Shown here: positions 3,775 to 42,294 of the stretch, piece after piece
Position numbering within the stretch: position 1 is the stretch's first letter
Layout of the letters: every line of letters starts with the position of its first letter
Assembly: GCF_030296015.1 (NCBI RefSeq)
Contig: NZ_AP027368.1
Span: forward strand, 3,582,839 to 3,646,838
Length of the DNA stretch: 64,000 nt
Direction: 5' to 3'
DNA from: Ferrimonas sp. YFM
GTDB taxonomy: Bacteria; Pseudomonadota; Gammaproteobacteria; Enterobacterales; Shewanellaceae
Made by a program: the position numbers and the translations under genes
Notes under the pieces: generated by a model
What the model was told of the DNA's origin: nothing
Seen by the model: only the letters and a program-made list of their open reading frames with translations
Database searches by the model: none

Positions 3775-5148
3775 ATGAAAACCTTCAATAAGACCCTTAT
3801 CGCCACGGCTCTGATGGCCGTCAGTGCCGGCTCCTCCGCTGCCGGATTCCTGCTGAATGAAACCTCCGTTTCCGGACTCGGTCGTGCCTTTGCCGGTGAA
3901 GGCGCTGCAGCTGATGATGCGGCCGTGCTCGCCCGCAACCCTGCCGCCATGGCTCTGTTTGACCAGACCGCCCTCTCTCTGGCTGGCACCTACATCGATC
4001 CCGGCGTGGACATGCGCGGTGTATCCAGCCCACTGGGATCCGATCCCAGCGCCCTGAACATTGATGGCGCCGCCCCTCAAGCCTTTGTTCCAGCGGCCTA
4101 CCTGATCATGCCCCTGAACGACAAAGTGGCCATCGGTTTTGCCGGTTACTCCAACTTTGGCCTGGGTACCGACTTCGGTGAGAACTACCCTGCAGGCACC
4201 ATCGCCGGCAGCACCGACCTGCTCACCATGAACCTGAACACCAGCGTTTCCTACCGCGTCAACGACCACCTGAGCCTGGGCCTGGGTCTGAACGCGGTCT
4301 ACGGCGATGCCGAACTGATTCGCCACTTCGGTGAAACCGCTCCCCTGATCAACGGCATGGTCGATGCCAACCTGGGTCCTGCCGCCGGCCTGGCTCCGGA
4401 TCTGGAGCCCAGCAGCATCTCCGGCAAGATGGCCGGTGACGGTTGGGGCTTTGGCTTCAACGTGGGCGTCCTCTATGAGGTGAACGACGATCACCGCATC
4501 GCCCTGACCTACAAGTCCAAGACCACCATCGAACTGGAAGGCCACTACACCAATGACCTGGCCGCCGGTATTGCCACCGACTCCCTGGTGGGTGTGGGCG
4601 GCAGCCAGGTTGACGGCACCCTGGATCTGGATCTGCCAGACATCCTGGAGTTCTCCGGCTACCACAAGGTCTCCGACAAGGTGATCCTGCACACCACGGT
4701 GATGTGGACCGGCTGGAGCGTGTTTGAAGAGCTGCGTGGCGTCGCTGACGGTGACACCACCCTGGAAGGCCCCCTGTGCGCCAACGGCAATCCTGCCTGT
4801 CAGATCTCCGATGGCCAGACCCTGCTGCTGAAGGAAGAGAACTTTGAAGATGCCTGGCGCTTTGGCCTGGGTATGACCTACCTGATGAGCGACGCGGTTA
4901 CCCTGCGTGCCGGTATCGCCTACGATGAGACTCCCATCCCAGAGACTCACCGTACCGTTTCCATCCCGGATTCTGACCGCATGTGGTACAGCTTCGGCGC
5001 CAACTACCAGCTGTCCGACAACTCCGACGTCGACCTGGCCTTTACCTTCATCGATGGCAAAGAGGTTCGCGTTGAAGAGGATGGCTATGTGCTGAACTCC
5101 GAAGGTAACGCCTTCCTGGTGGGTGCCCAGTACAACTACCGCTTCTGA
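3775..5148 (+). CDS. fadL: Outer membrane long-chain fatty acid transporter FadL
   Basis: Outer-membrane beta-barrel (OMPP1/FadL/TodX family) that lets long-chain fatty acids or other hydrophobic compounds cross the outer membrane. The start at 3775 is chosen because it opens a clean signal peptide (MKTFNKTLIATALMAVSAGSSAA) and is preceded by AGAGAGAG; an upstream in-frame ATG at 3730 would spoil the signal. After cleavage comes the family N-terminal plug: GFLLNETSVSGLGRAFAGEG followed by the NPA motif (LARNPAAM). The protein ends in an aromatic barrel terminus (YNYRF). It has 457 residues, normal for the family, and is followed by a strong terminator. Confidence 0.93.
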   Translation: MKTFNKTLIATALMAVSAGSSAAGFLLNETSVSGLGRAFAGEGAAADDAAVLARNPAAMALFDQTALSLAGTYIDPGVDMRGVSSPLGSDPSALNIDGAAPQAFVPAAYLIMPLNDKVAIGFAGYSNFGLGTDFGENYPAGTIAGSTDLLTMNLNTSVSYRVNDHLSLGLGLNAVYGDAELIRHFGETAPLINGMVDANLGPAAGLAPDLEPSSISGKMAGDGWGFGFNVGVLYEVNDDHRIALTYKSKTTIELEGHYTNDLAAGIATDSLVGVGGSQVDGTLDLDLPDILEFSGYHKVSDKVILHTTVMWTGWSVFEELRGVADGDTTLEGPLCANGNPACQISDGQTLLLKEENFEDAWRFGLGMTYLMSDAVTLRAGIAYDETPIPETHRTVSIPDSDRMWYSFGANYQLSDNSDVDLAFTFIDGKEVRVEEDGYVLNSEGNAFLVGAQYNYRF

Positions 5149-5167
5149 TAGTTGCCCCCGCCTGAAA

Positions 5168-5192
5168 AAGCCGCGACAAAGTGTCGCGGCTT
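5168..5192 (+). terminator. Intrinsic terminator after fadL
   Basis: AAGCCGCGAC-AAAGT-GTCGCGGCTT followed by TTTT; a strong GC stem with a T run, separating fadL from the next operon. Confidence 0.9.
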
Positions 5193-5250
5193 TTTTGTTT
5201 CCACTTTCTTTCCACACCGTCGCCATTAATGTAAAGAGTGTGCTCGGAAG

Positions 5251-5279
5251 TTGAATATTAGAAAATTCTAATTTATAGT
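5251..5279 (+). promoter_or_regulatory. Sigma-70 promoter of the MMPL operon
   Basis: TTGAAT (5251-5256) and TATAGT (5274-5279) are separated by exactly 17 bases, a near-consensus promoter. The start of transcription would fall near 5286. The spacer is almost entirely occupied by the first operator dyad. Confidence 0.65.
5257..5272. promoter_or_regulatory. Operator copy 1 (16-bp dyad in promoter spacer)
   Basis: ATTAGAA-AA-TTCTAAT is a perfect inverted repeat lying exactly between the -35 and -10 elements. A repressor bound here would block RNA polymerase. Size and form suggest an ArsR- or TetR-type regulator; no regulator gene is adjacent. Confidence 0.6.
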
Positions 5280-5288
5280 GTGCACACT
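5277..5288. promoter_or_regulatory. 12-bp palindrome between the two operators
   Basis: AGTGTGCACACT is a perfect palindrome at the predicted transcription start, midway between the two 16-bp dyads. Confidence 0.4.
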
Positions 5289-5290
5289 GA

Positions 5291-5306
5291 ATTAGGGAGT
5301 TCTAAT
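5291..5306. promoter_or_regulatory. Operator copy 2 (over the ribosome-binding site)
   Basis: ATTAGGG-AG-TTCTAAT matches copy 1 at 13 of 16 positions, is 34 bp away centre to centre, and covers the Shine-Dalgarno GGGAG right up to the ATG at 5307. Confidence 0.55.
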
Positions 5307-7835
5307 ATGAAAGAGAGGCTGATCCAGTTCGCCACCGGCTACCCCAGGCGGGTCTATGCCCTGGTACTGGCGCTGACCCTGGCCGCCGCGGCCATGATAC
5401 CGATGATCCAGATCGATACCGATCCTGAGAATATGCTTCCCGAAGAGGATGTGGCCCGGGTGTTCCACAACGCCACCAAGGCTGAGTTTGCCCTCTACGA
5501 CAGCATAGTGATTGGCGCGGTCACGGATCAGCCAAAGGGCATCTTTACTCCCTCGTCACTGGCTCAGATGAAGCGGATCACCGACAACATCCTGGCCATC
5601 GATGGGGTGGTCAAGGCCGACCTGATGGCACTCTCCACCGTGGACAACATCACCCAGGAGGGGCCGGGCACCATACGCTTTGAGTATATGATGCAGGCCG
5701 CGCCCGACCATCAGGCCGGTGCCGATGCCATTGCCGAAGCGGTCGCCCGGCTTCCATTGCTGAACAACACCCTGGTGTCCCAAGACAGGCAGGCTGTCGC
5801 CATCTACGTTCCCCTGAAGGACAAGCGACAAAGCTTCGACATCGCCGAGCAGATCCGGACCATCGTCCGGCAGGAGAAGCCCGACGCTCAGTACCACATC
5901 ACCGGCCTGCCCGTGGCCGAGAACCAGTTCGGCCACGAAATGTTCGTGCAGATGGGGGTCTCCGCTCCCCTGGCCGGCGTGATGATCTTCCTGATGATGC
6001 TCTACTTCTTCCGCTCCCTGCCTCTGGTGGTCGCCCCTATGCTGGTGGCCATGGCCACGGTGATCATCATTGTCGGCAGCCTCATCGGCATGGGATTCAC
6101 GGTGCACATCATGTCCTCGATGATCGCCATCTTCCTGATGCCCATTGCAGTAGTGGACTCCATCCACATCATGAGCGAGTTTGCCGACCACTATCAGCCG
6201 GGAAAGCAGGCGCGCAAAGTGATCGAACAGGTGGTGCGAGACCTGTTTACCCCCATGCTGTTCACCTCGGTGACGTCGGCCGTGGGCTTCTTCTCCCTGA
6301 TGATCACCCCGATTCCACCGGTGCAGATCTTCGGCGCCTTCGTGGGCAGCGGCATCCTCTTGGCCTTCCTGCTGACCATCACCCTGTTGCCCGCCTACAT
6401 AGTGCGCATGTCTCCACAGGCGCTGGAAAAGATGCAGCAGAAGCTGCACGCCCCCAAAGGCCCCAGTCTGCTCAGCCGTTTGCTGGCACGCACAGGTCAG
6501 CGTAGCGTCACCCTGGCCAAGCCCATCGTCGCACTCAGCCTGACGGTGCTGGCCCTGAGCCTGTGGGGCATCAGCAAAATTCAGATCAACGACAATCCGG
6601 TGCGCTGGTTCAAACAGGACCATGAGATCCGGGTGGCCGATCGGGCGTTGAACCACCATTTTGCCGGCACTTACGATGCCTATCTGGTGCTCAGCACTCA
6701 GTCCTCCGACGCCATCTCAGACACGCAGCTCCAGCAACTCCTCGACATCCTGGGAGCGCCCCAGCGGGCGTTGATAGCCAAGGCTCAGCAAGGCAGTGCC
6801 GAAGCCCTCTCTGAGCTGCTTCTTGTCCTGGAAGACGCCAGCTTCGAGACCGGCGATCCGCGCATTGACCCCCTGCTAACCAGCCTGGAACATCAAGCCG
6901 AAGCCCAGCGACGCTTCCTGGATCCTGCCCTGCTCGGCTGGATGGCTCAGCTGCAGGCCCATCTGGACGGCACCGGCCTGGTGGGCAAAAGCAATGGCCT
7001 GCCCGACATCGTCAAGACGGTCAACCGGGAGCTGCGCAGTGGTGAGGACAAAGATCTGGCCCTGCCGGACAGCGCCGCCGGCGTAGCTCAGACGCTGCTG
7101 CAGTATCAGTCCAGTCACCGCCCCAACGATCTGTGGCATTTCGTCACGCCGGATTACCGCAAAGGGCTGCTGTGGCTGCAATTGACCTCCGGCGACAATC
7201 AGCACATGAGTCAGGTCATTGATGCCGTCGACACCTACCTGGTTCAACATCCTGCGCCGCAAGGCATAGAGCTCAACTGGGCGGGCAAAGCCTACATCAA
7301 CGTGGTATGGCAGGACGCCATGGTCAGCGGCATGCGAGACAGCCTGCTTTCCGCCTTTGTCATTGTGCTGGGGATGATGGTGCTGCTGTTCCGCTCTCCC
7401 CTTTACGGACTGCTGGCGATGTTGCCCCTGAGCCTCACCATCAGTTTCATCTATGGCCTTATCGGGTGGCTGGGTAAGGATTACGACATGCCCATCGCCG
7501 TGCTCTCTGCCTTGACCCTGGGGCTGTCGGTGGACTTTGCCATCCACTTCCTGGAGCGGTTCCGCGAGCAGCTCAAACTGGAGGGCGACGTGCGCCGGGC
7601 CCTGGCCGCCATGTTCCAGGAGCCAGCCAGGGCCATCAGCCGCAACGCCATCGTGATTGCCATCGGCTTCACCCCGCTGCTGCTGGCGCCCCTGGTTCCC
7701 TACATCACCGTCGGGGTGCTGCTGGCCAGCATCATGGCGATCTCCGCCCTGACCACACTGCTGTTGCTGCCCGCCAGCTTGTGGTTGCTGGCCCCTCTGC
7801 TTAAACGCACCCCGACCTTGGCCACCCAACAATGA
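5307..7835 (+). CDS. MMPL/RND superfamily transporter
   Basis: Inner-membrane RND-type exporter of 842 residues with the two-half architecture of MMPL proteins: one N-terminal membrane helix, a large periplasmic loop, a five-helix bundle, then a repeat of this plan. The intramembrane acidic residues are visible in AVVDSIHIMSEF in the first half and LGLSVDFAIHFLERF in the second. The start at ATG 5307 is chosen over GTG 5280 because GGGAG lies 7 bases upstream and the GTG sits in the predicted promoter. It is first in an operon with a LolA-like protein and an outer-membrane barrel; such trios are thought to move lipids or hydrophobic compounds across the envelope. The substrate is unknown. Confidence 0.88.
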   Translation: MKERLIQFATGYPRRVYALVLALTLAAAAMIPMIQIDTDPENMLPEEDVARVFHNATKAEFALYDSIVIGAVTDQPKGIFTPSSLAQMKRITDNILAIDGVVKADLMALSTVDNITQEGPGTIRFEYMMQAAPDHQAGADAIAEAVARLPLLNNTLVSQDRQAVAIYVPLKDKRQSFDIAEQIRTIVRQEKPDAQYHITGLPVAENQFGHEMFVQMGVSAPLAGVMIFLMMLYFFRSLPLVVAPMLVAMATVIIIVGSLIGMGFTVHIMSSMIAIFLMPIAVVDSIHIMSEFADHYQPGKQARKVIEQVVRDLFTPMLFTSVTSAVGFFSLMITPIPPVQIFGAFVGSGILLAFLLTITLLPAYIVRMSPQALEKMQQKLHAPKGPSLLSRLLARTGQRSVTLAKPIVALSLTVLALSLWGISKIQINDNPVRWFKQDHEIRVADRALNHHFAGTYDAYLVLSTQSSDAISDTQLQQLLDILGAPQRALIAKAQQGSAEALSELLLVLEDASFETGDPRIDPLLTSLEHQAEAQRRFLDPALLGWMAQLQAHLDGTGLVGKSNGLPDIVKTVNRELRSGEDKDLALPDSAAGVAQTLLQYQSSHRPNDLWHFVTPDYRKGLLWLQLTSGDNQHMSQVIDAVDTYLVQHPAPQGIELNWAGKAYINVVWQDAMVSGMRDSLLSAFVIVLGMMVLLFRSPLYGLLAMLPLSLTISFIYGLIGWLGKDYDMPIAVLSALTLGLSVDFAIHFLERFREQLKLEGDVRRALAAMFQEPARAISRNAIVIAIGFTPLLLAPLVPYITVGVLLASIMAISALTTLLLLPASLWLLAPLLKRTPTLATQQ

Positions 7836-7846
7836 GGAGACGCGCC

Positions 7847-8623
7847 ATGAGAACCCTGTTCACCCTGATTGCCACATCCCTCTTCAACCTGCAGGCGATG
7901 GCCATCACCGCCGATGAAGTGGTGGAGAGGGCCAACCTGGCCTCCTTCTACGCCGGTGACGACGGCCGCAGTCAGGCCAGGATGATCATCGTGGATGCCC
8001 AGGGGCGCAAACAAACCCGGCAGTTTTCCCTGCTGCGCCGTACCCTGGAGAAAGGCGGCGATCAACAGATGTTGGTGTTCTTCTCCCGCCCCTCAGATGT
8101 CCGTGGCACCGTATTCAGGGTCGACAAGAAGGTCGACCGGGACGACGATCGCTGGCTCTATCTTCCGGGGCTGGACCTGCTCAAACGGATCAGCGCCGGG
8201 GACAAACGCACCTCCTTTGTGGGCAGCCACTTCTTCTACGAAGATGTCTCCGGGCGCAACCTCAAAGAGGACAGCTTCACCCTGATTGAGGAGAGTGACC
8301 GCCACTACCTGATTGAAGCCAAACCCAAGGCGCCCGATGCCGTGGAGTTCTCCAGCTACAAGGTGTGGGTGGACAAAGACAACTGGCTGCCCGCCAAGGT
8401 GGAATACCACGACAAGCAGGGAGCGCTCTATCGCCGGGTCGAAACGGTAAAAACCGACACCATTGGCGGCTACCCCACAGTGCTGCGCTCAAAGATCAGT
8501 GATCTTGCCTCAGGGGGCTACACCCTGATGGAGTTTCGCGGCGTTCAGTATGATCTGGGGCTGCCAGAGTCGATCTTCTCCGAGCGCAGCATGCGCCAGC
8601 CTCCGGCCAAATACCTGAGGTAG
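7847..8623 (+). CDS. LolA-like outer membrane lipoprotein-sorting family protein
   Basis: Periplasmic protein of 258 residues with a signal peptide (MRTLFTLIATSLFNLQAMA) and a body matching the LolA-like 'outer membrane lipoprotein-sorting protein' family (PF17131-type): the block around FFSRPSDVRGTVFRV, then DDRWLYLPGLDLLKRISAGDKRTSFVGSHFFYEDVSGR, and DKDNWLPAKVEYHDKQG. These folds are open half-barrels that carry a lipid or hydrophobic ligand. The start at 7847 is preferred because GAGG lies 9-12 bases upstream; an ATG at 7832 overlaps the end of the transporter gene. It probably shuttles cargo between the MMPL transporter and the barrel encoded next. Confidence 0.82.
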   Translation: MRTLFTLIATSLFNLQAMAITADEVVERANLASFYAGDDGRSQARMIIVDAQGRKQTRQFSLLRRTLEKGGDQQMLVFFSRPSDVRGTVFRVDKKVDRDDDRWLYLPGLDLLKRISAGDKRTSFVGSHFFYEDVSGRNLKEDSFTLIEESDRHYLIEAKPKAPDAVEFSSYKVWVDKDNWLPAKVEYHDKQGALYRRVETVKTDTIGGYPTVLRSKISDLASGGYTLMEFRGVQYDLGLPESIFSERSMRQPPAKYLR

Positions 8624-8627
8624 GCCG

Positions 8628-9905
8628 ATGACTCGAATGCTGAGCCTGGCCTTAGGCCTGATCCTGTTCGCCCCTGTCACATTGGCCTCCGACGACGAGT
8701 GGGGTGAGGAGTGGGGGGACGATCCCTGGGCTGAGCAGGTCTCCTCTCCCTGGCAGCCAGTGTCCGGGTATCTGGAGCTGGGCTATGGCACCCGCCTGCA
8801 ATCCGACGCGACCGGTTTGGATGGCCCCACCCTGTCTCAGGCCCTGGGGCGCCTGGAGACCGGCTATCGCAGTGACCGCCTTCAGGGCAGTCTGCGGCTG
8901 GACCTCGGCTATGATGAAGCCGTCGAACAGTGGATTGTCGATGTACGTGAACTGGCCCTGGGCACGGACATCGGGGCCGACGCCCACCTGAAAGCGGGTC
9001 GGCAGGTGTTGACCTGGGGCACCGGGGATTACCTGTTCCTCAATGACCTGTTCCCCAAGGACTGGCAGGCGTTCTTCTCCGGTCAGGACGATGAGTACCT
9101 CAAGGCGCCAGTCAACTCCATCAAGGGCAGTTGGTATGGCCAGAGCCTCAACCTAGATCTGGTGTACATGCCCAGGTTCGAAGCGGACAACTACCTTACC
9201 GGGGAGCGCTTCTCCTACTTTGATCCCATCAGTGGCCAGAAAGTCGCCCCAGACAAGCGTGCTGATGAGCCCAGTGACGATGCCGCCTCGGCCCGGCTTT
9301 ACTGGACCCGGCAGGGGGCCGAATACGCCCTCTACGGTTATTGGGGCTACACCGGCCAGCCCCTGGGCGCAGACGCCCAGGGCAGCCCTCAACACGCCCG
9401 CCTCAACGCCTATGGCGCCAGTGTACGCCTGCCTGCCCTGGGTGGGCTGCTCAACGCCGAAGCCGCCTACCACCTGAGCCCGGACGCAGACAATGCCGAC
9501 CTGTCCGCCCCTAAAGATAAGGTGCTGGCCCTGCTGGGCTATGAAACCGAACTGGTCACCAATCTCACCGGCTCGGTGCAGTACTACCTCGAGCATATCC
9601 GTGACTATCAGGATTACCTGGCGCCGCTGCCCAACCCGGAGTACGCCGCCGACCAGAATCGCCAGTTGCTCACCCTGAGGCTCACCTACCGGGCCATGCA
9701 GGAGAAGCTGACCCTGAGTCTGTTCAGCTTCTACTCACCCACGGACCGGGATTACTACCTGAAACCCCAGGTGAGCTACCGCCCCAACGATCAATGGCTG
9801 CTGAGCGGCGGCCTGAATCTGATGAATGGTCAGGACCAGCACACCTTCTTTGGCCAGCTGGATGACAACAGCAACGCCTGGTTCAGGCTGAGATACCACT
9901 ACTAA
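8628..9905 (+). CDS. Outer membrane beta-barrel protein (DUF1302-like)
   Basis: Protein of 425 residues with a signal peptide ending near LASDDEW, a very acidic Trp-rich segment (DDEWGEEWGDDPWAEQ), and a barrel of alternating strands ending in RLRYHY. The segment GRQVLTWGTGDYLFLNDLFP is the conserved plug or first-strand motif seen in DUF1302-like and related porin-type proteins. It begins 4 bases after the LolA-like gene, in the same operon. By analogy with DUF1302/DUF1329/MMPL gene trios it would be the outer-membrane exit of a three-layer transport route. The acidic Trp-rich N-terminal segment is unusual and could bind a partner. Confidence 0.75.
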   Translation: MTRMLSLALGLILFAPVTLASDDEWGEEWGDDPWAEQVSSPWQPVSGYLELGYGTRLQSDATGLDGPTLSQALGRLETGYRSDRLQGSLRLDLGYDEAVEQWIVDVRELALGTDIGADAHLKAGRQVLTWGTGDYLFLNDLFPKDWQAFFSGQDDEYLKAPVNSIKGSWYGQSLNLDLVYMPRFEADNYLTGERFSYFDPISGQKVAPDKRADEPSDDAASARLYWTRQGAEYALYGYWGYTGQPLGADAQGSPQHARLNAYGASVRLPALGGLLNAEAAYHLSPDADNADLSAPKDKVLALLGYETELVTNLTGSVQYYLEHIRDYQDYLAPLPNPEYAADQNRQLLTLRLTYRAMQEKLTLSLFSFYSPTDRDYYLKPQVSYRPNDQWLLSGGLNLMNGQDQHTFFGQLDDNSNAWFRLRYHY

Positions 9906-9936: not shown

Positions 9937-10158
9937 ATGAGTCGATTTTCTACCGAACGCGCCACCATGACTTTTGCCGGCACCATGGTGCTGCTGTCCG
10001 TCGCCCTGACCCACTGGGTTCACCCGCTCTTCTTCTGGTTCACGGTTTTCATCGGTGTTAACCTAATCCAATCCTCCTTCACCGGGCTGTGCCCGGCCAC
10101 CATGGTGATGAAGAAGCTGGGGATGCCGACAGAAAGAGAGTTAGCCACCAGAGAATAG
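9937..10158 (+). CDS. DUF2892 (YgaP-like) small membrane protein
   Basis: Small inner-membrane protein of 73 residues with two hydrophobic segments and the DUF2892 signature: an N-terminal ER.T...AG, then FIGVNLIQSSFTGLCPATMVMKKLG, including the conserved FTG.CP. In E. coli YgaP this domain is the membrane anchor fused to a rhodanese; here the rhodanese is encoded separately 5 bases downstream. Start supported by AAAGGAG 8 bases before ATG. Role is inferred as membrane anchoring or sulfur handling together with the rhodanese. Confidence 0.85.
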   Translation: MSRFSTERATMTFAGTMVLLSVALTHWVHPLFFWFTVFIGVNLIQSSFTGLCPATMVMKKLGMPTERELATRE

Positions 10159-10163
10159 GACAG

Positions 10164-10514
10164 ATGTTCAGAACCCTGATTGCCGTACTGTTGCTGCTGA
10201 GCAGCACCCTGACCGTCGCCAGCGAGCGCGCCCACCAAGCCTGGCAACAGATTCGCCAGAACGAAGCCGTCATCATCGATGTGCGCAGCCCGGGCGAATA
10301 CGCCGAAGGACGCCTGAAGGGGGCCATCAACATCCCCTATGATGTGATTGGCGAGGAGATCGCCCAGTTGGGTCTGGCTAAAGATCAGCCCATAGTGGTG
10401 TACTGCCGCAGCGGCCGACGCTCGGGCATCGCCCAGGAGGTGTTACAGAATCAGGGGTTCAAGAAGGTGCACAATGGCGGCGGCCTTGAGGAGATGCTGG
10501 AGAGCGGACGCTGA
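10164..10514 (+). CDS. Periplasmic rhodanese-like sulfurtransferase
   Basis: Single-domain rhodanese of 116 residues with a signal peptide (MFRTLIAVLLLLSSTLTVAS), so it works outside the cytoplasm like PspE. The active-site loop is CRSGRRS with the persulfide-forming cysteine at residue 81; the family DVRSPGEYAEGRLKGAINIP block is intact. The start at 10164 is chosen for AGGA upstream and the signal peptide. It is last in the operon and followed by a strong terminator. With the DUF2892 gene it forms a split version of YgaP, which in E. coli is controlled by an ArsR-type repressor. Confidence 0.88.
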   Translation: MFRTLIAVLLLLSSTLTVASERAHQAWQQIRQNEAVIIDVRSPGEYAEGRLKGAINIPYDVIGEEIAQLGLAKDQPIVVYCRSGRRSGIAQEVLQNQGFKKVHNGGGLEEMLESGR

Positions 10515-34960: not shown

Positions 34961-35339
34961 TGATGGGGCATCCCTTGGACTCTCTCATGATTGACAAAGA
35001 AGGAAACAGAGGGCTGATGTAGCACGAATGCAGCCCTTGCCCCCTCCCGGTTAACCAAGATTTGATCGTGGCGTGTTTTTCACTTTCCCGCCGTTAACAA
35101 CGGGTTCACACCTCACATTTTCACACATTGAAACCCGCTATTTCGCTACGAGATCCGACCACCTTTGCCGCCGATGACCGTTCTGCCGTGATCCCGGTCA
35201 CTCCTGAACCCAGCCTGAACCAAAAATCTCACCCGCTGACAGTTTTGCTTATACCCCTGCAACTTTTCTTCGCTCCATAAGATTAGGAATAGCTAATACA
35301 GTGGTAACTAAAGAAAAGTAAAGCACTCAGAGGTATCTT
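34961..35339. other. Intergenic region upstream of the octaheme operon
   Basis: No gene is seen. A GC hairpin (GCCCC...GGGGC) overlaps the preceding stop, and AGGGCTG/CAGCCCT arms lie near 35015-35040, either of which may end transcription. A CRP-type dyad is at 35187-35202. The part before the cytochrome gene is A/T-rich. Confidence 0.5.
35187..35202. promoter_or_regulatory. Candidate CRP site upstream of the octaheme operon
   Basis: CGTGA-TCCCGG-TCACT matches TGTGA-N6-TCACA at eight of ten half-site positions, with a perfect GTGA...TCAC core. CRP is a main activator of anaerobic respiration in Shewanella, which fits the genes downstream. Confidence 0.55.
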
Positions 35340-35666
35340 ATGAAACGTCGCTCCTATCAAGCTCTTACCGCAGTTCTGCTGCTTACTGTCTCCGCTGGTC
35401 TGGCGGCTGCCGAAGGCGGCAACCCCAAGAAAGGCAAGCACCTCTATAAGAAACACTGCAAGGCCTGCCACAGCCAGAACAGTGAAGCGATGGAACTGAC
35501 CCCCATGTCCAAAACCATGGCCCAGTGGGATCGCTTCTTCCAGCGCAACAAGCATAAGGCCAAGCCCGAAGTGTTCCAGGGACTCTCCGACCAGGCTCTG
35601 AAGGACATCCAGCAGTTCCTCTATGACCACGCTGCGGACTCCGACCAGCCAGCCACCTGCGGTTAA
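35340..35666 (+). CDS. Periplasmic monoheme cytochrome c
   Basis: Cytochrome of 108 residues with a signal peptide ending near LAAA and one heme site, CKACH at residues 40-44. Methionines at 51 and 56 (MELTPMSK) are candidates for the axial ligand. A small c-type electron carrier, first in an operon with a DUF3373 barrel and the octaheme cytochrome, and probably its electron donor. GAGGT precedes the start. Confidence 0.9.
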   Translation: MKRRSYQALTAVLLLTVSAGLAAAEGGNPKKGKHLYKKHCKACHSQNSEAMELTPMSKTMAQWDRFFQRNKHKAKPEVFQGLSDQALKDIQQFLYDHAADSDQPATCG

Positions 35667-35692
35667 TCAAACAACAACAAGCCCTTAAGGAA

Positions 35693-37276
35693 ATGATGAT
35701 GAAACCCACACTCGTAGCATTAGTCGTCTCACAAGCGCTGATTCTGCCCCAGGCGATGGCCGCAGACAGCACCGAGAAATCCATCGACGATCTCAAGCGC
35801 CAGCTGGCCGAGGTCACCGAAGAGCTGGAGTACCTGTCTGAGCGTGTCGACAAGCCGGAGAGCCATGCCGCCACCGACCGTGTGCTGATCACCGGAGATT
35901 TTCGCACCAAGGCCCACAGCCTGCACTACCAGGATGTGGTCTGGAGCCCAGGCGTGACCGTTGCCACCCCAATGGGCAGAATGCCCATGTCCATGAATGG
36001 CCCTGGCTTCGTGCCCACCGCCCAGGACATCGACAACGACGTGTTCTACACCACCCGCCTGCGCCTCAACCTCAAAGCCAAGGTATGGGACAACGTCAGC
36101 TTTGCCGGCCGTCTGACCATGTTCAAGAGCTGGGGTGACTCCACCGAAGTCAACGTGTTTGACTCCTGGAACTCCTTCACCATGGACGGCACCAGCAGCG
36201 GCCACCCTAATGGCGACACAGTGCGCGTTGAGCGCGCCTACTTCGACTGGAAGAACATCGGTGGCACCGAGTTCTACCTGTCCGTCGGCCGCCGCCCTTC
36301 CACCTACGGCTACCCCACCAACTTCCGTGAGAACGAGCTGCGTGGCGGCACCCCCTCAGGCCACCTAGTGAACTTCAACTTCGACGGCGCCACCGTGGGC
36401 TACCACACCGAGCACCTGACCGGCATGGAAGGCCAGGTAGTTCGCTTCTGTTACGGCCAGGGCTATGAGTCCCAGTGGGGCAACGGTGAGCTGTTCGGCA
36501 ACACCTCTGTAGACGATGTCCACCTGGGTGGTTTCAACATCGACATCCTCAACGATGGCACCAACTTCCTGCAGTTCATCCTGTTTGGCGCCAAAGATGT
36601 GGCCGATGGCTTTAAAGGCACCATGTCCATGCCCGACGAGCTGCTGGCGATGTTCGGTCAGGACGGCATGGGCAACGTGACTCCTGTGGTTCGCTACCAG
36701 CCCAGCACCAACATCGGTGACATCTATCTGAGCGGCCTGACCTTTGTCCGTGAAGAGGACAGCGGCATCAAGTGGTTCACCTCCCTGGGCTGGACCCGCA
36801 CCGACCCCAACGGCAACTTCGGCATGTTTGGCGGCCTGAACAACGATCCTCTCTACCAGATGATCAGTCAGACCGAGATGGATCCCAACCCCATCGGCAC
36901 CACCGACAACGAAGCCCACGATGGCTACTCCATCTACGCCGGCATCCAGATCCCTGTAGGCGATGGCAAGTTCGGCCTGGAGTACAACTACGGCTCCAAG
37001 TACTGGACCCCCTTCACCCAGGCTCAGGACGATCCCATCGGCAGCAAGCTGGCCACCCGTGGTCACGCCTATGAGGGTTACTACATCCATGACATCAATC
37101 CAAAGACCTTCGTGAAGTTTGCGGCCCTGTACTACGACTACGAGTACACCGGCTCCGGCTCCCCGGTGGGCGCCCCACAGAACATTGATGAGGTTCTGGC
37201 TGGCCAGGCATTCAGCATGCTGCCTGCGATGGACTCCGCATTCGACGTGAATGCCTCCATCACAGTGAAGTTCTAA
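35693..37276 (+). CDS. DUF3373 outer membrane porin-like protein
   Basis: Protein of 527 residues with a signal peptide (ends QAMAA), a short coiled coil (about residues 28-53, KSIDDLKRQLAEVTEELEYL), then a barrel with the DUF3373 features: ITGDFRTKAHSL, TTRLRLNLKAKVWDNVSF, GRRPSTYGYPTNFRENELRGG, and a C-terminal NASITVKF. DUF3373 proteins commonly sit beside multiheme cytochromes. Its role here may be to let an oxyanion substrate reach the periplasm. Three ATG codons run together at 35693; AAGG precedes them. Confidence 0.85.
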   Translation: MMMKPTLVALVVSQALILPQAMAADSTEKSIDDLKRQLAEVTEELEYLSERVDKPESHAATDRVLITGDFRTKAHSLHYQDVVWSPGVTVATPMGRMPMSMNGPGFVPTAQDIDNDVFYTTRLRLNLKAKVWDNVSFAGRLTMFKSWGDSTEVNVFDSWNSFTMDGTSSGHPNGDTVRVERAYFDWKNIGGTEFYLSVGRRPSTYGYPTNFRENELRGGTPSGHLVNFNFDGATVGYHTEHLTGMEGQVVRFCYGQGYESQWGNGELFGNTSVDDVHLGGFNIDILNDGTNFLQFILFGAKDVADGFKGTMSMPDELLAMFGQDGMGNVTPVVRYQPSTNIGDIYLSGLTFVREEDSGIKWFTSLGWTRTDPNGNFGMFGGLNNDPLYQMISQTEMDPNPIGTTDNEAHDGYSIYAGIQIPVGDGKFGLEYNYGSKYWTPFTQAQDDPIGSKLATRGHAYEGYYIHDINPKTFVKFAALYYDYEYTGSGSPVGAPQNIDEVLAGQAFSMLPAMDSAFDVNASITVKF

Positions 37277-37341
37277 GTTTCATCATCTCGGCGGCCCAAC
37301 CTCAGCACCAGAGGGGACGGCCGCCTCTCCAGGGAAAAGAT

Positions 37342-38718
37342 ATGCGCACATTACTGATTACCACTCTGCTGACCGGCCTGATGTTGCCGGTTGGCGCACA
37401 GGCGGAGAATCCTCACAAAGAGTTTATCTCCGGTCCCATCAACAGCGGCAGCGAAGCCACCGCCCAGTGCATCGAATGTCACGAAGAGCACACCGAAGCC
37501 TTTATGAAGACCAGTCACTGGACATGGGCCAAGGAGCAGACCGTCAACGGCAAGACCGTGAAACTGGGTAAAAAGAACGCCATCAACAACTACTGCGTTT
37601 CCGTCTCCAGCAACGAGCCTCGCTGCACCAAGTGTCACGCCGGTTACGGCTATGAAGACGCCAAGTTCGACTTCCAAGACGCCACCAAGGTGGACTGCCT
37701 GGTGTGTCACGACACCACAGGTACCTACAAGAAGGATCTCAGCGGCTACGCCTTCAAGAGCGTCGACCTGGTGAGAGTCTCCCAGAACGTGGGTGCCCCG
37801 GTACGCGACAACTGCGGCAGCTGCCACTTCTTTGGCGGCGGCGGCGACGGCGTGAAACACGGTGACATGGACTCCAGCATGGCCTATCCGGACAAGGCGC
37901 TGGATGTGCACATGGACGCCGATGGCATGGACTTCCAGTGCCAGGACTGCCACAAGGGTGAGTCCCACACCATCAAGGGTCAGGCGATGAGCGTCTCTCC
38001 AGGCAGCACCGACCACCTGGAGTGCACCAGTTGCCACGAAAACGACGTCCATAAAAACGCCAAGCTCAACCGCCACACCGAGAAGGTGGCTTGTCAGACC
38101 TGCCACATCCCCGAGTTTGCCAAGGTTGAGCCCACCAAGATGTGGTGGGACTGGTCTGAAGCGGGCCAGGACCGCGAAGAAGCTAAGAACCAGTGGGGCC
38201 GCAAGGACTACATGAAGAAGAAGGGCAGCTTCGTCTGGGGCCAGAAGGTTCAGCCTGAGTACGCCTGGTACAACGGTACTGCTGACGCCTACCTGTTTGG
38301 CGACAAGATGGATCCGGCTAAAGTGACCGCCCTGAGCAAGCCTGCGGGCGCTAAGGATGACGGCGAGTCCAAGATCTACCCCTTCAAGGTACACCGTGGC
38401 AAGCAGCTGTATGATGCCAAGCACATGGTATTTGTTCCTACCAAGGTGTTTGGCAAGGATGGCTACTGGAAGACCTTTGACTGGGACAAGTCCGCCACTG
38501 CCGGCATGAATACCCACCCTGCCATGCAGGCCAAGGGACTGACCTACAGTGGTCAGAAAGGGTTTGCCGAGACCGAAATGTGGTGGCGCATCAACCACAT
38601 GGTCTCACCCAAGCAAGAAGCTCTGAAGTGCAGCGCCTGCCACAGCAAGAAGGGCCGGCTGGATTGGGAAGCCCTGGGCTATGACCAGGATCCTATGAAA
38701 GCGAAGAAGAAGAAGTAA
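37342..38718 (+). CDS. Octaheme tetrathionate reductase-type cytochrome c (Otr)
   Basis: Periplasmic cytochrome of 458 residues with a signal peptide (ends AQA) and eight CXXCH heme sites at residues 43, 95, 119, 158, 200, 228, 251 and 430. The wide gap between hemes seven and eight, and stretches such as MKTSHWTWAKEQ, NVGAPVRDNCG, KHGDMDSSMAYPDKA and ETEMWWRINHMVSPK, fit the Shewanella Otr family. Otr reduces tetrathionate, nitrite and hydroxylamine in vitro, and its physiological substrate is debated. It is last in the operon with a monoheme cytochrome and a DUF3373 porin. A lysine-rich tail ends the protein. Confidence 0.92.
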   Translation: MRTLLITTLLTGLMLPVGAQAENPHKEFISGPINSGSEATAQCIECHEEHTEAFMKTSHWTWAKEQTVNGKTVKLGKKNAINNYCVSVSSNEPRCTKCHAGYGYEDAKFDFQDATKVDCLVCHDTTGTYKKDLSGYAFKSVDLVRVSQNVGAPVRDNCGSCHFFGGGGDGVKHGDMDSSMAYPDKALDVHMDADGMDFQCQDCHKGESHTIKGQAMSVSPGSTDHLECTSCHENDVHKNAKLNRHTEKVACQTCHIPEFAKVEPTKMWWDWSEAGQDREEAKNQWGRKDYMKKKGSFVWGQKVQPEYAWYNGTADAYLFGDKMDPAKVTALSKPAGAKDDGESKIYPFKVHRGKQLYDAKHMVFVPTKVFGKDGYWKTFDWDKSATAGMNTHPAMQAKGLTYSGQKGFAETEMWWRINHMVSPKQEALKCSACHSKKGRLDWEALGYDQDPMKAKKKK

Positions 38719-40704: not shown

Positions 40705-41592
40705 CTAATGAATGAAAGAGTGCTCGATGCTGGACACCAGGGGACGGAACCAGGGCTGGCCCTGACTCTCCCAGGAGGCCAACAGACTGCGGTGACACAG
40801 ATGGTCAAATCCGTCGAGCTCGAAGGCCACCAGCTCGCCGCTGGCAAGCTGGGCACGAATCAGGGCGGCGGAGATAAAGCCGATCCCCTCGCCACGAATC
40901 AGTGCCTCCACCATCAGATGCAGATCGCCACAGGAGACCTGGAACCGAAAATCCTCCAGTTCCAGCTTTTTCGCTGCCAGGTTCTGCACCAACAGGTCCC
41001 GGGAGCAACAACCCGGCTTGGCCACATAGAGGGTGTGGGCCATTAAGGCCTCCAGGCTCTGCTCATCGATGCTGCCCAGCAGTGCCGGGCTGGCCACAAA
41101 GATCACCTTGTCCGGCGGCAAAGGGTGACGCCAGCAGTTGCTCAGGTTCAGGGGCTGAATGTGCTCGGTGATGGCGATGTCGTAACGCCCCTCATTGATG
41201 GCGGCGATCACCTGATCGCTGGCCAGGTAATCAAACTCGACCGAGTGCTGTTTCTCCCGGTTAAATTCACTCAAGGCCACGGGGAAATAGCTGGCACCGA
41301 ACGCCGGAGTACAGCACAGCCTCAGCGCATCGCTGCCACTTTGCTGCAACCGGGAGAACAGCTGGCGCTCCATCTCAAGTAATCGGCGCCCATGATCCAG
41401 CACCAGCTCGCCCGACAGGGTGGGCTTGATGGGAGTCAGCTGTCGATTCAGCAACACGGCGCCGCAGCGCTCCTCCAGCGCCTTGATACGCTGAGAGGCT
41501 GCCGAGTGGGTGATGTTCAAGGAAGCGGCCGCTTTAGAGATACTGCCAAGCTCCACCGACAGCACCAGGGTCTTGAGATCCTGGGTCTTCAT
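40705..41592 (-). CDS. LysR-family transcriptional regulator
   Basis: Regulator of 295 residues with an N-terminal winged helix (residues 1-60, SISKAAASLNITHSAASQRI KALEERCGAVLLNR region) and a periplasmic-binding-protein-like effector domain. It diverges from an FMN reductase gene across 153 bases, the classic layout in which a LysR protein controls its neighbour. The effector cannot be told from sequence; a CCSRD stretch holds paired cysteines that could be redox-sensitive. Confidence 0.88.
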   Translation of the reverse strand: MKTQDLKTLVLSVELGSISKAAASLNITHSAASQRIKALEERCGAVLLNRQLTPIKPTLSGELVLDHGRRLLEMERQLFSRLQQSGSDALRLCCTPAFGASYFPVALSEFNREKQHSVEFDYLASDQVIAAINEGRYDIAITEHIQPLNLSNCWRHPLPPDKVIFVASPALLGSIDEQSLEALMAHTLYVAKPGCCSRDLLVQNLAAKKLELEDFRFQVSCGDLHLMVEALIRGEGIGFISAALIRAQLASGELVAFELDGFDHLCHRSLLASWESQGQPWFRPLVSSIEHSFIH

Positions 41593-41745
41593 ACACAGTC
41601 CTTACCCGAGGGCGCGGTACACCGGAAATTAACTCCAGAGTATCAATTAAATTTAGACTTTACTAATATAAAAGTGACCATCGTGATCCAATACAAAAAA
41701 TCATGGGTCTACACTGATTAGATTGATCAGTGTAAGGAGCATGTT

Positions 41746-42294
41746 ATGGGATCTCTCAAGGTACTGGCTCTGTGTGGCAGCCTGAGGCAGGAATCACTGA
41801 ACCGGAAACTGATGCTTCAGGCCATGGCCTTGGCCCCCAGAGGCGTCGATGTGCAAGAGGGGAAAATCTGCGCCATTCCCCTCTACAGCCAGGACCTGCA
41901 ACAGATGGGATTCCCCGAATCGGTGGAAACACTGCACCGGCAACTGATGGAGTCCGATGCCATACTGCTGGTGACCCCTGAGTACAACTACTCCATCCCC
42001 GGCGTACTGAAAAACGCCATCGACTGGTTGTCGAGATACTCCCCTCATGGATTCAACAACAAGCCTGTGGCGATCATGGGCGCCAGCCCGGGCAGAATGG
42101 GCACCAGCCGCTGTCAGTATCACCTCCGCCAGGTGATGGTGTTTCTCAACGCCTGGGTATTGAACAGGCCGGAAGTGATGCTCAGTGAAGCGCATCTGGC
42201 CTTTGACGAGGCAGGCAATCTGAAGGAGCACAGGCTCAAGGAGTTGGTGGAGAGCCAGATGCAGGCATTACGGCAGATGATTCACGGCGAGTAA
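41746..42294 (+). CDS. NADPH-dependent FMN reductase family protein
   Basis: Flavodoxin-fold reductase of 182 residues. FMN-binding features are the phosphate loop CGSLRQESLNRKL, TPEYNYSIPGVLKNAIDWLS and the GASPGRMGTSRCQYHLRQ loop. This is the ChrR/YieF type, which reduces quinones, chromate and other acceptors with NAD(P)H. AAGGAG precedes the ATG. The divergent LysR gene is its probable regulator. Confidence 0.9.
   Translation: MGSLKVLALCGSLRQESLNRKLMLQAMALAPRGVDVQEGKICAIPLYSQDLQQMGFPESVETLHRQLMESDAILLVTPEYNYSIPGVLKNAIDWLSRYSPHGFNNKPVAIMGASPGRMGTSRCQYHLRQVMVFLNAWVLNRPEVMLSEAHLAFDEAGNLKEHRLKELVESQMQALRQMIHGE

What the first reader, a model, noticed from the sequence alone, without database searches (positions are those of the whole stretch)
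5251..5306. Twin 16-bp operators built into a promoter and its ribosome-binding site
ATTAGAA-AA-TTCTAAT fills the 17-bp spacer between TTGAAT and TATAGT almost exactly. A second copy, ATTAGGG-AG-TTCTAAT, covers the Shine-Dalgarno sequence right up to the start codon. They are 34 bp apart, with a 12-bp palindrome AGTGTGCACACT between them at the predicted transcription start. This is a tight repressor switch, and the regulator is not encoded nearby. The split YgaP (DUF2892 plus rhodanese) downstream makes an ArsR-type sulfide, persulfide or organotin sensor (YgaV/BigR/SqrR type) an attractive guess.
Basis: partly seen in the sequence, partly recalled or inferred. Interest (0 to 1): 0.7.

Follow-up and report, generated by a model that had tools for sequence, protein, structure and literature searches.

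The report
Twin operators of a sulfide-sensor regulon
Two matching DNA switches sit on the promoter of a membrane-export operon in a marine bacterium, and comparison with relatives points to a reactive-sulfur sensor of the HlyU/SqrR kind, encoded far away in the genome, as the protein that reads them.

Summary
The two 16-bp dyads are real and exactly placed: 5257-5272 fills the spacer of a TTGAAT/TATAGT promoter, and 5291-5306 covers the Shine-Dalgarno up to the ATG of an MMPL/RND transporter gene. All 18 orthologues found in 60 related genomes have an exact ATTAG-N6-CTAAT upstream; 16 of 18 have two or more with up to 1 mismatch. The 12-bp palindrome is not conserved.

Among 80 named transporter loci, 50 carry an ArsR gene of the HlyU/SqrR/BigR/YgaV type; all 27 with that gene adjacent and divergent have the dyad (23 exact). 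Eleven have one gene between; the one tested is a sulfide:quinone reductase. Where the ArsR recognition helix differs, the operator differs. The window's Ferrimonas-type genome keeps one such ArsR, about 1.1 Mb away, with both sensor cysteines and a one-mismatch dyad before its own start. In a tree it joins unlinked HlyU-like genes, not transporter-linked copies.

Best reading: a sulfane-sulfur-released repressor switch working in trans. Binding, repression and inducer are inferred. The dyad is not enriched genome-wide. RND genes near such regulators were already reported: new member of a known kind.

The parts
5251..5256 (+). -35 element TTGAAT
   Evidence: TTGAATATTAG also in several orthologues
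5257..5272 (+). operator 1, ATTAGAA-AA-TTCTAAT, fills the promoter spacer
   Evidence: exact ATTAG-N6-CTAAT in 18 of 18 orthologous upstream regions
5274..5279 (+). -10 element TATAGT
5277..5288 (.). 12-bp palindrome AGTGTGCACACT, judged incidental
   Evidence: present but not conserved in relatives
5291..5306 (+). operator 2, ATTAG-GGAGTT-CTAAT, contains the Shine-Dalgarno GGGAG (5295-5299) and ends at the start codon
5307..7835 (+). MMPL/RND (HAE3-like) inner-membrane transporter gene
   Evidence: Pfam MMPL 139 bits; NCBIfam HAE3 hit below its cut-off; orthologues
7847..8623 (+). LolA-like periplasmic protein
   Evidence: Pfam PF17131; downstream on the same strand in 77 of 80 loci
8628..9905 (+). 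probable outer-membrane beta-barrel (inference), no Pfam family
   Evidence: no Pfam hit; downstream on the same strand in 77 of 80 loci
9937..10158 (+). YgaP-like membrane domain (DUF2892)
   Evidence: Pfam PF11127 43.9 bits; downstream on the same strand in 44 of 80 loci
10164..10514 (+). rhodanese with signal-like N-terminus, PspE-like
   Evidence: Pfam Rhodanese 68 bits; NCBIfam PspE 65.2 bits, below cut-off 102; in this operon in 4 of 80 loci
35282..35297 (+). third exact dyad in the window, 42 nt before a cytochrome c gene; candidate further target
   Evidence: a dyad 39-42 nt before the same gene in 5 other congeneric genomes (the other 8 were not examined for this gene)
35340..38718 (+). 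cytochrome c (35340-35666), DUF3373 porin-like (35693-37276), octaheme cytochrome of the tetrathionate reductase family (37342-38718)
   Evidence: TIGR04315, 587 bits, cut-off 375
41652..41667 (+). one-mismatch dyad TTTAGACTTTACTAAT between a LysR gene (40705-41592, -) and an FMN reductase gene (41746-42294, +)
   Evidence: exact dyads in that intergenic region in 3 congeneric genomes

Best explanation
The two dyads are the operators of the one close HlyU/SqrR/BigR/YgaV-type ArsR repressor found in this genome (G000:C1:22619-22930, minus strand, outside the window). A reduced dimer on each dyad would block RNA polymerase at the spacer and at the start of the transcript, shutting off the MMPL / LolA-like / beta-barrel / DUF2892 / rhodanese operon. 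Sulfane sulfur (persulfides formed from H2S) would link Cys34 and Cys100 of the repressor, release it and switch the envelope exporter on; a weaker dyad before the repressor's own start would give negative feedback. Shown here: the dyads, their conservation, the promoter fit, the physical link of operon and ArsR in relatives, the joint change of recognition helix and operator, the cysteine pair, and the dyad before the ArsR gene. Inferred: protein-DNA binding, repression rather than activation, the inducer, autoregulation, and what the exporter carries.
For: (1) 18 of 18 orthologous upstream regions (150 nt) have an exact dyad (1000 shuffle rounds: mean 0.005, max 1 region); spacings 0-5 and 7-14 give no exact hit. 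(2) Own ArsR P0001: its best solved relatives are 5znx 'transcriptional activator' 5.7e-29, HlyU (3jth) 1.2e-28, BigR (3pqj) 5.3e-21, the 6o8l group 'ArsR family' 4.3e-19 (I recall it as SqrR), YgaV (3cuo) 1.2e-18; Cys34 and Cys100 align with cysteines of the HlyU, BigR and 6o8l chains and are kept in 51 of 51 and 50 of 51 rows, own included. The next ArsR of this genome scores 6.6e-10 against it. (3) Dyad ATTAGTCTCTCCTAAA 13 nt before its own start; of 30 related ArsR genes, 8 have an exact dyad and 20 one with up to 1 mismatch in the 150 nt before the match (shuffles 0.011 and 0.275). (4) 50 of 80 named MMPL loci carry such an ArsR; all 27 with an adjacent divergent one have the dyad with up to 1 mismatch (23 exact), and 5 of 5 with it downstream on the opposite strand. 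(5) Helix code: in linked loci without an intervening gene, SQS(A/S)LSQ(H/Q)L helices have the dyad in 32 of 32, S(A/P)S(A/S)FSQHL helices in 1 of 7; those 7 instead have TTTAG-N7-CGAAA, against 2 of 73 elsewhere. (6) Sulfur context: in 11 loci one ~425-aa gene lies between ArsR and MMPL; the one tested matches sulfide-quinone reductase (5.1e-153), and a dyad with up to 1 mismatch lies before that gene in 8 of 11 (1 exact). (7) In many named loci the dyad runs straight into a TATAAT (CTAATATAAT), a repressor position. (8) Kin, by eye: the E. coli ygaV promoter has twin TTTAG-N6-CTTAA just before the start codon, and the HlyU operator oligo of PMC10509353 holds a dyad of the same geometry with two departures.
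Against: No binding or expression data. The dyad is not enriched genome-wide at 1 mismatch (39 against 43). Of 52 exact dyads in 14 genomes of the genus, 33 lie before MMPL, the ArsR, the cytochrome, SLAC1 or LysR genes; 19 have no recurrent context. The repressor's own dyad has one mismatch here, and in 4 of 13 congeneric genomes none with up to 1 mismatch lies near the ArsR start (G002 only at -166, G006 a two-mismatch copy, G001 and G011 none). 30 of 80 loci have no such ArsR and 20 of those have no dyad. In 4 of the 27 adjacent divergent loci the dyad is not near the ArsR end of the gap. The E. coli ygaV promoter has no ATTAG-N6-CTAAT even at 2 mismatches; the likeness is at 3. The published SqrR box (ATTC-N8-GAAT, PMC9774250) is absent in strict form at 5251-5306 (read). 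The own genome has no close SQR (6.0e-5). V. cholerae HlyU activates one target, so repression is not certain. Loci are related, so counts are not independent.
Confidence: 0.8

Rival explanations
1. The LysR regulator in this window (40705-41592, minus strand) reads the dyads, since ATTAG-N6-CTAAT contains a T-N11-A core (the LysR motif is recalled), and MMPL belongs to its regulon.
For: Exact dyads lie between this LysR gene and the FMN reductase gene in 3 congeneric genomes, upstream of LysR genes in 2 more, and before the octaheme-cytochrome operon in 6 of 14 genomes, own included; NCBIfam calls it multiheme-cytochrome-associated.
Against: Outside the genus the MMPL dyads go with ArsR, not LysR: a search with this LysR finds a LysR-like ORF in 1 of the 80 loci, while ArsR is in 50; the operator changes with the ArsR helix; the dyad also precedes the ArsR gene itself.
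Confidence: 0.1
2. Another regulator class (TetR, MarR, AraC) reads the dyads from elsewhere in the genome.
For: Symmetric AT-rich dyads of this size suit several families; 30 of 80 loci have no linked ArsR; one other regulator-like family, AraC type by eye, recurs in 8 of 80 loci about 1.5 kb upstream.
Against: No other regulator family comes near the ArsR's 49-50 of 80 among the families shared by 8 or more loci (recognised by eye), and the helix-operator covariation would be unexplained. TetR and MarR genes were not searched for by model.
Confidence: 0.06
3. The ArsR binds but activates the operon, as HlyU does at Vibrio hlyA, rather than repressing it.
For: P0001 is closest to HlyU and groups with unlinked ArsR genes; PMC6018088 (passages) reports that V. 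cholerae HlyU activates hlyA and represses its own gene.
Against: Both dyads overlap the core promoter and the ribosome-binding site, a repressor position; at hlyA the protected region lies 563-627 bp upstream of the translation start.
Confidence: 0.08

Closest known systems
E. coli YgaV and the ygaVP promoter
   Same: ArsR of the same subfamily; by eye, twin dyads with 6-bp spacers between transcription start and start codon (start site 28 bp before the codon from PMC9774250 passages); a YgaP-type protein is the target
   Different: Half-sites TTTAG/CTTAA, three departures from ATTAG/CTAAT (not found at 2 mismatches); regulator encoded in the operon; target is a single YgaP, not an MMPL export operon
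Vibrio HlyU
   Same: Closest named solved relatives of P0001; represses its own gene (PMC6018088 passages); loses DNA binding with persulfide (PMC10509353 passages); operator oligo of the same dyad geometry by eye
   Different: Best-studied target is activated from a far-upstream site; different target genes
Rhodobacter SqrR, Xylella/Acinetobacter BigR
   Same: Dithiol sulfane-sulfur sensing ArsR repressors near sqr and persulfide genes; here the gene between ArsR and MMPL matches SQR in the one locus tested
   Different: SqrR box given as ATTC-N8-GAAT; P0001 scores 93.5 bits against the NCBIfam BigR equivalog, cut-off 155
RND genes near two-cysteine SqrR-type regulators (PMC12423496, section 2.1 read)
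   Same: Reports that such regulators occur near RND efflux genes, sqr, rhodaneses and sulfite exporters
   Different: That section names no operator sequence, no MMPL/LolA-like/barrel operon and no detached regulator; its supplement was not seen
Azospira suillum SQR-RND operon induced by H2S (PMC5358917, passages)
   Same: SQR beside RND genes, and a DUF2892 gene, raised under sulfide
   Different: RND pump with a membrane-fusion subunit rather than MMPL/LolA-like; the word ArsR does not occur in the text

Membership tests
Dithiol sulfane-sulfur sensing ArsR subfamily (HlyU/SqrR/BigR/YgaV) | ArsR winged-helix domain, closest to characterised members | tested here: met
   Pfam HTH_5 50.8 bits, cut-off 22; best solved hits include HlyU, BigR and YgaV by name
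Dithiol sulfane-sulfur sensing ArsR subfamily (HlyU/SqrR/BigR/YgaV) | Two conserved cysteines, one in the N-terminal half and one near the C-terminus | tested here: met
   Cys34 and Cys100, aligned with cysteines of HlyU, BigR and the 6o8l chain
Dithiol sulfane-sulfur sensing ArsR subfamily (HlyU/SqrR/BigR/YgaV) | Persulfide closes a polysulfide bridge and releases DNA | not testable with these tools
   Needs protein chemistry
Dithiol sulfane-sulfur sensing ArsR subfamily (HlyU/SqrR/BigR/YgaV) | Linked to sulfide or sulfane-sulfur genes | tested here: inconclusive
   In relatives yes: gene between ArsR and MMPL in 11 loci, one example a sulfide-quinone reductase. In the own genome the ArsR is not next to the operon and no close SQR was found (best 6.0e-5)
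BigR (NCBIfam equivalog NF040642) | Score above the curated cut-off | tested here: not met
   93.5 against 155 bits
SqrR operator | ATTC-N8-GAAT box | tested here: not met
   Absent in strict form at 5251-5306 (read); the sites are ATTAG-N6-CTAAT
YgaP | YgaP-like membrane domain and rhodanese fused in one protein | tested here: not met
   Two separate ORFs; the rhodanese has a signal-like N-terminus
HlyU-like unlinked lineage rather than MMPL-linked ArsR | Own ArsR groups with ArsR genes not linked to the MMPL operon | tested here: met
   13 congeneric rows with 13 unlinked rows of the same family, support 98/95 (few columns, rough bootstrap; no Vibrio HlyU in the tree, so orthology to it is not shown)

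The most novel reading that the evidence does not exclude
In this genus an HlyU-like regulator has taken over, in trans, an export operon that elsewhere carries its own SqrR-like repressor, because both proteins read the same ATTAG-N6-CTAAT code. It runs a small sulfane-sulfur regulon: the MMPL/LolA-like/barrel exporter (perhaps moving hydrophobic sulfur or sulfur-damaged lipid across the envelope), an octaheme tetrathionate-reductase-family operon, a SLAC1/TehA-type anion channel and itself. The recognition helix and operator of this ArsR subfamily change together in a readable way.
Probability: 0.4. Interest if true: 0.6.

Novelty: new member of a known kind. Interest (0 to 1): 0.45.

Why it matters
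It gives a testable operator code for a widespread family of reactive-sulfur sensors and ties a conserved but uncharacterised MMPL/LolA-like/beta-barrel export operon to sulfide stress. It also offers a case in which an operon keeps its operators without a linked regulator and seems to be read by a distant relative. Association of RND genes with such regulators was already in print, so the advance is in operators, regulon and wiring rather than in a new kind of system.

Tried and rejected
The 12-bp palindrome as a functional element: not conserved. Chance palindromes: ruled out by conservation, the spacing control and shuffles. Spacing control at 1 mismatch: other spacings do give hits, most at spacing 11 (6 of 18; 25 of 80) and at spacing 0 (7 of 30 ArsR genes; 11 of 80); 20 of the 25 at spacing 11 overlap a spacing-6 dyad, mostly because the dyad is followed by ATAAT or preceded by ATTAC. 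Fixed helical phasing of the twin sites: rejected as a requirement, because spacing among the 23 named loci with two dyads (up to 1 mismatch) runs from 15 to 43, commonest 26 (9 of 23). Genome-wide frequency of the dyad as evidence: not usable. L010 (2143413), the next-best match to the 16-bp dyad: no regulatory context; it begins 32 nt inside an ORF. Scattered dyad hits are leads only: CoA-disulfide-reductase-like gene in G011, ArsP-type permease in G005 and G008, molybdopterin-domain protein in G011, Tll0287-like protein in G000 (1 mismatch) and G011 (exact). Literature: the rows listed by the searches (lists capped; one search returned nothing relevant) show no paper on this operon with its operators; only the open-licence library was searched, no supplements. 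YgaV footprint and BigR box letters were not in the passages read.

Errors on the way: locus L091 was read on the wrong strand; one search used the right one. In one search the L221 entry was the wrong ORF (a glycosyl hydrolase); one search used the intended one. Rows dropped: L183 (ArsR-like at 5e-9) counts as 'no ArsR' because the cut-off was 1e-15; L052 was left out of alignment A1, which holds 9 of the 18 orthologues. In one search, 20 of 21 unfetched dyad sites were taken (one in G010, which has no close ArsR of this type, was left). The TTTAG-N7-CGAAA element was found by eye on the same seven loci on which it was then counted, so its 7 of 7 is descriptive; the E. coli and hlyA likenesses were also found by eye after the fact. 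Named loci and G-handle genomes overlap (contig lengths of L107, L108 and L109 equal those of G012:C48, G005:C27 and G008:C11), so the 18 and the 80 are not independent sets.

Full report
What is there. The promoter region reads TTGAAT-ATTAGAAAATTCTAATT-TATAGT, then AGTGTGCACACT (its first three bases are the last three of the -10), then GA, ATTAGGGAGTTCTAAT and ATG. Operator 1 is 5257-5272, operator 2 is 5291-5306, the start codon is 5307. The promoter scan of 5100-5500 finds this promoter and no other. Five dyads with up to 1 mismatch lie in the 64-kb window against 0.25 expected. The genes behind are an MMPL/RND transporter, a LolA-like protein, a protein without a Pfam hit that I take to be a beta-barrel, a YgaP-like membrane domain and a rhodanese.

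Conservation. A protein search of 60 related genomes gave 18 clear orthologues of the MMPL gene (54-100% identical over nearly the whole length, loci L036-L053); the next hit is at 6.8e-30 and 25% over part of the protein. All 18 have at least one exact ATTAG-N6-CTAAT in the 150 nt before the transporter match, 24 exact copies in all and 36 with up to 1 mismatch; 1000 rounds of dinucleotide shuffles gave a mean of 0.005 and a maximum of 1 region. Spacings of 0-5 and 7-14 give no exact hit; at 1 mismatch spacing 11 gives 6 of 18 and two others 1 each. By the listing, 16 of 18 have two or more dyads with up to 1 mismatch; L051 and L053 have one. The central 12-bp palindrome is not shared.

The ArsR search of the own genome and reading of its loci showed one gene, G000:C1:22619-22930 on the minus strand, with a dyad 13 nt before its start (ATTAGTCTCTCCTAAA, one mismatch). 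Its protein (P0001) is closest to HlyU among named solved structures, followed by BigR, the 6o8l group (recalled as SqrR) and YgaV, and it has the cysteine pair. The other ArsR genes of this genome score 6.6e-10 or worse against it. It is about 1.1 Mb from the operon if the single contig is circular. Of 30 related ArsR genes fetched, 8 have an exact dyad and 20 one with up to 1 mismatch in the 150 nt before the match; among the 13 congeneric ones, 4 have none with up to 1 mismatch near the start.

Physical linkage. In one search three of the 60 genomes (G020, G027, G057) turned out to encode such an ArsR 168-180 bp from the MMPL match and divergent to it; one search shows these genes. Of the 80, 50 have a HlyU/SqrR-type ArsR (E under 1e-15) in the locus: 27 adjacent and divergent, 11 divergent with one gene between, 7 downstream on the same strand, 5 downstream on the opposite strand; 30 have none. 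The dyad (up to 1 mismatch, 200 nt) precedes the transporter in 27 of 27, 0 of 11, 1 of 7, 5 of 5 and 10 of 30 of these classes; exact counts are 23, 0, 0, 5 and 8. In the 11, a gene of about 425 codons lies between; the one I tested (L155) matches sulfide-quinone reductase structures at 5.1e-153 (no NCBIfam cut-off reached), and in 8 of 11 a dyad with up to 1 mismatch (1 exact) lies between ArsR and that gene. Exact dyads before MMPL are found in 36 of 80 loci at a spacing of 6; other spacings from 0 to 12 give at most 1. At 1 mismatch spacing 6 gives 43, spacing 11 gives 25 and spacing 0 gives 11; 20 of the 25 overlap a spacing-6 dyad, often because the dyad runs into TATAAT.

Helix and operator change together. 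Among the 39 linked loci without an intervening gene, 32 ArsR proteins have SQS(A/S)LSQ(H/Q)L in the recognition helix and 32 of 32 have the dyad; 7 have S(A/P)S(A/S)FSQHL and 1 of 7 has it. Those 7 share another element, TTTAG-N7-CGAAA (up to 1 mismatch in 7 of 7 and in 2 of 73 others), which I found by inspection of the same seven. Relatedness inflates such counts, but the coupling is hard to explain unless the ArsR reads the operator.

Which ArsR is it? In a tree of 80 ArsR proteins the 13 congeneric ones group with 13 unlinked ArsR of the same family (98/95), and the MMPL-linked ArsRs fall outside that group (short alignment, bootstrap not settled, no Vibrio row). So in this genus the operon seems to be run in trans by an HlyU-like regulator. 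G023 and G050 also have the operon with dyads and their best such ArsR elsewhere on the same contig.

Other candidate targets. The exact dyad at 35282-35297 stands 42 nt before a cytochrome c gene followed by a DUF3373 gene and an octaheme cytochrome of the tetrathionate-reductase family; 6 of 14 genomes of the genus, own included, have a dyad before the cytochrome gene. A perfect dyad stands 14 nt before a SLAC1/TehA-type gene in G000, and an exact dyad in the same place in G009. Dyads between LysR and FMN-reductase genes keep a LysR reader possible for these sites, though a LysR-like ORF is in only 1 of the 80 MMPL loci. Genome-wide counts are weak: 52 exact dyads against 34 control matches over 14 genomes; 33 of the 52 fall before MMPL (16), the ArsR (4), the cytochrome (6), SLAC1 (2) or LysR genes (5), and 19 have no recurrent context, one of them not fetched.

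Mechanism. Operator 1 lies between -35 and -10 and operator 2 on the ribosome-binding site next to the probable transcription start, so a bound dimer should block initiation. The twin arrangement resembles the E. coli ygaV promoter, where I read twin TTTAG-N6-CTTAA at L106:1174-1205 before the ygaV ATG at 1212 and where PMC9774250 (passages) places the start 28 bp before the start codon and a YgaV footprint near the promoter; the strict dyad is not found there at 2 mismatches. The HlyU operator oligo printed in PMC10509353 (passages) holds a dyad of the same geometry; that paper reports that persulfide abolishes HlyU binding. From this I infer release by sulfane sulfur. The cargo of the exporter is unknown; sulfur species or sulfur-damaged lipids are guesses from the company it keeps.

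Novelty. PMC12423496 (section 2.1 read) already reports RND efflux genes near two-cysteine ArsR regulators, and PMC5358917 (passages) reports an H2S-raised SQR-RND operon and a DUF2892 gene. The rows listed in the searches show no paper on this operon's operators. I file this as a new member of a known kind.

Noticed in passing
window 35282-38718: An exact copy of the dyad precedes a cytochrome c / DUF3373 / octaheme tetrathionate-reductase-family operon; a dyad precedes the cytochrome gene in 6 of 14 genomes of the genus, own included.
   Followed up: partly
window 40705-42294: A multiheme-cytochrome-associated LysR gene and an FMN reductase gene share an intergenic region with a one-mismatch dyad (exact in 3 relatives); a LysR may share or compete for this code.
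   Followed up: partly
L017:1501-2508: Perfect palindromic dyad ATTAGATTAATCTAAT 14 nt before a SLAC1/TehA-type anion channel gene, next to a multiheme cytochrome gene; an exact dyad in the same place in G009.
   Followed up: partly
L116, L124, L127, L129, L135, L136, L142 upstream of the MMPL start: Seven loci with a different ArsR recognition helix carry a different element, TTTAG-N7-CGAAA, twice in some of them.
   Followed up: partly
L106:1174-1205 (E. coli K-12 ygaV promoter): Twin tandem TTTAG-N6-CTTAA dyads, 16 bp apart start to start, lie directly before ygaV (by eye).
   Followed up: partly
L110: A contig titled Marinobacter nauticus carries this locus at 69% identity with the two dyads identical to those of congeneric genome G007; the record may be misnamed.
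   Followed up: no
L160 and L162: A contig binned as Simkaniaceae has the same gene layout and nearly the same match scores as a Woeseiaceae contig; probably a binning error.
   Followed up: no
L011:1501-1516 and L199:1501-1516: Dyads (1 mismatch in the own genome, exact in G011) precede Tll0287-like genes in two genomes.
   Followed up: partly
L128, about 1.5 kb upstream of the MMPL gene: An AraC-type regulator gene (by eye) recurs near this operon in 8 of 80 loci.
   Followed up: no
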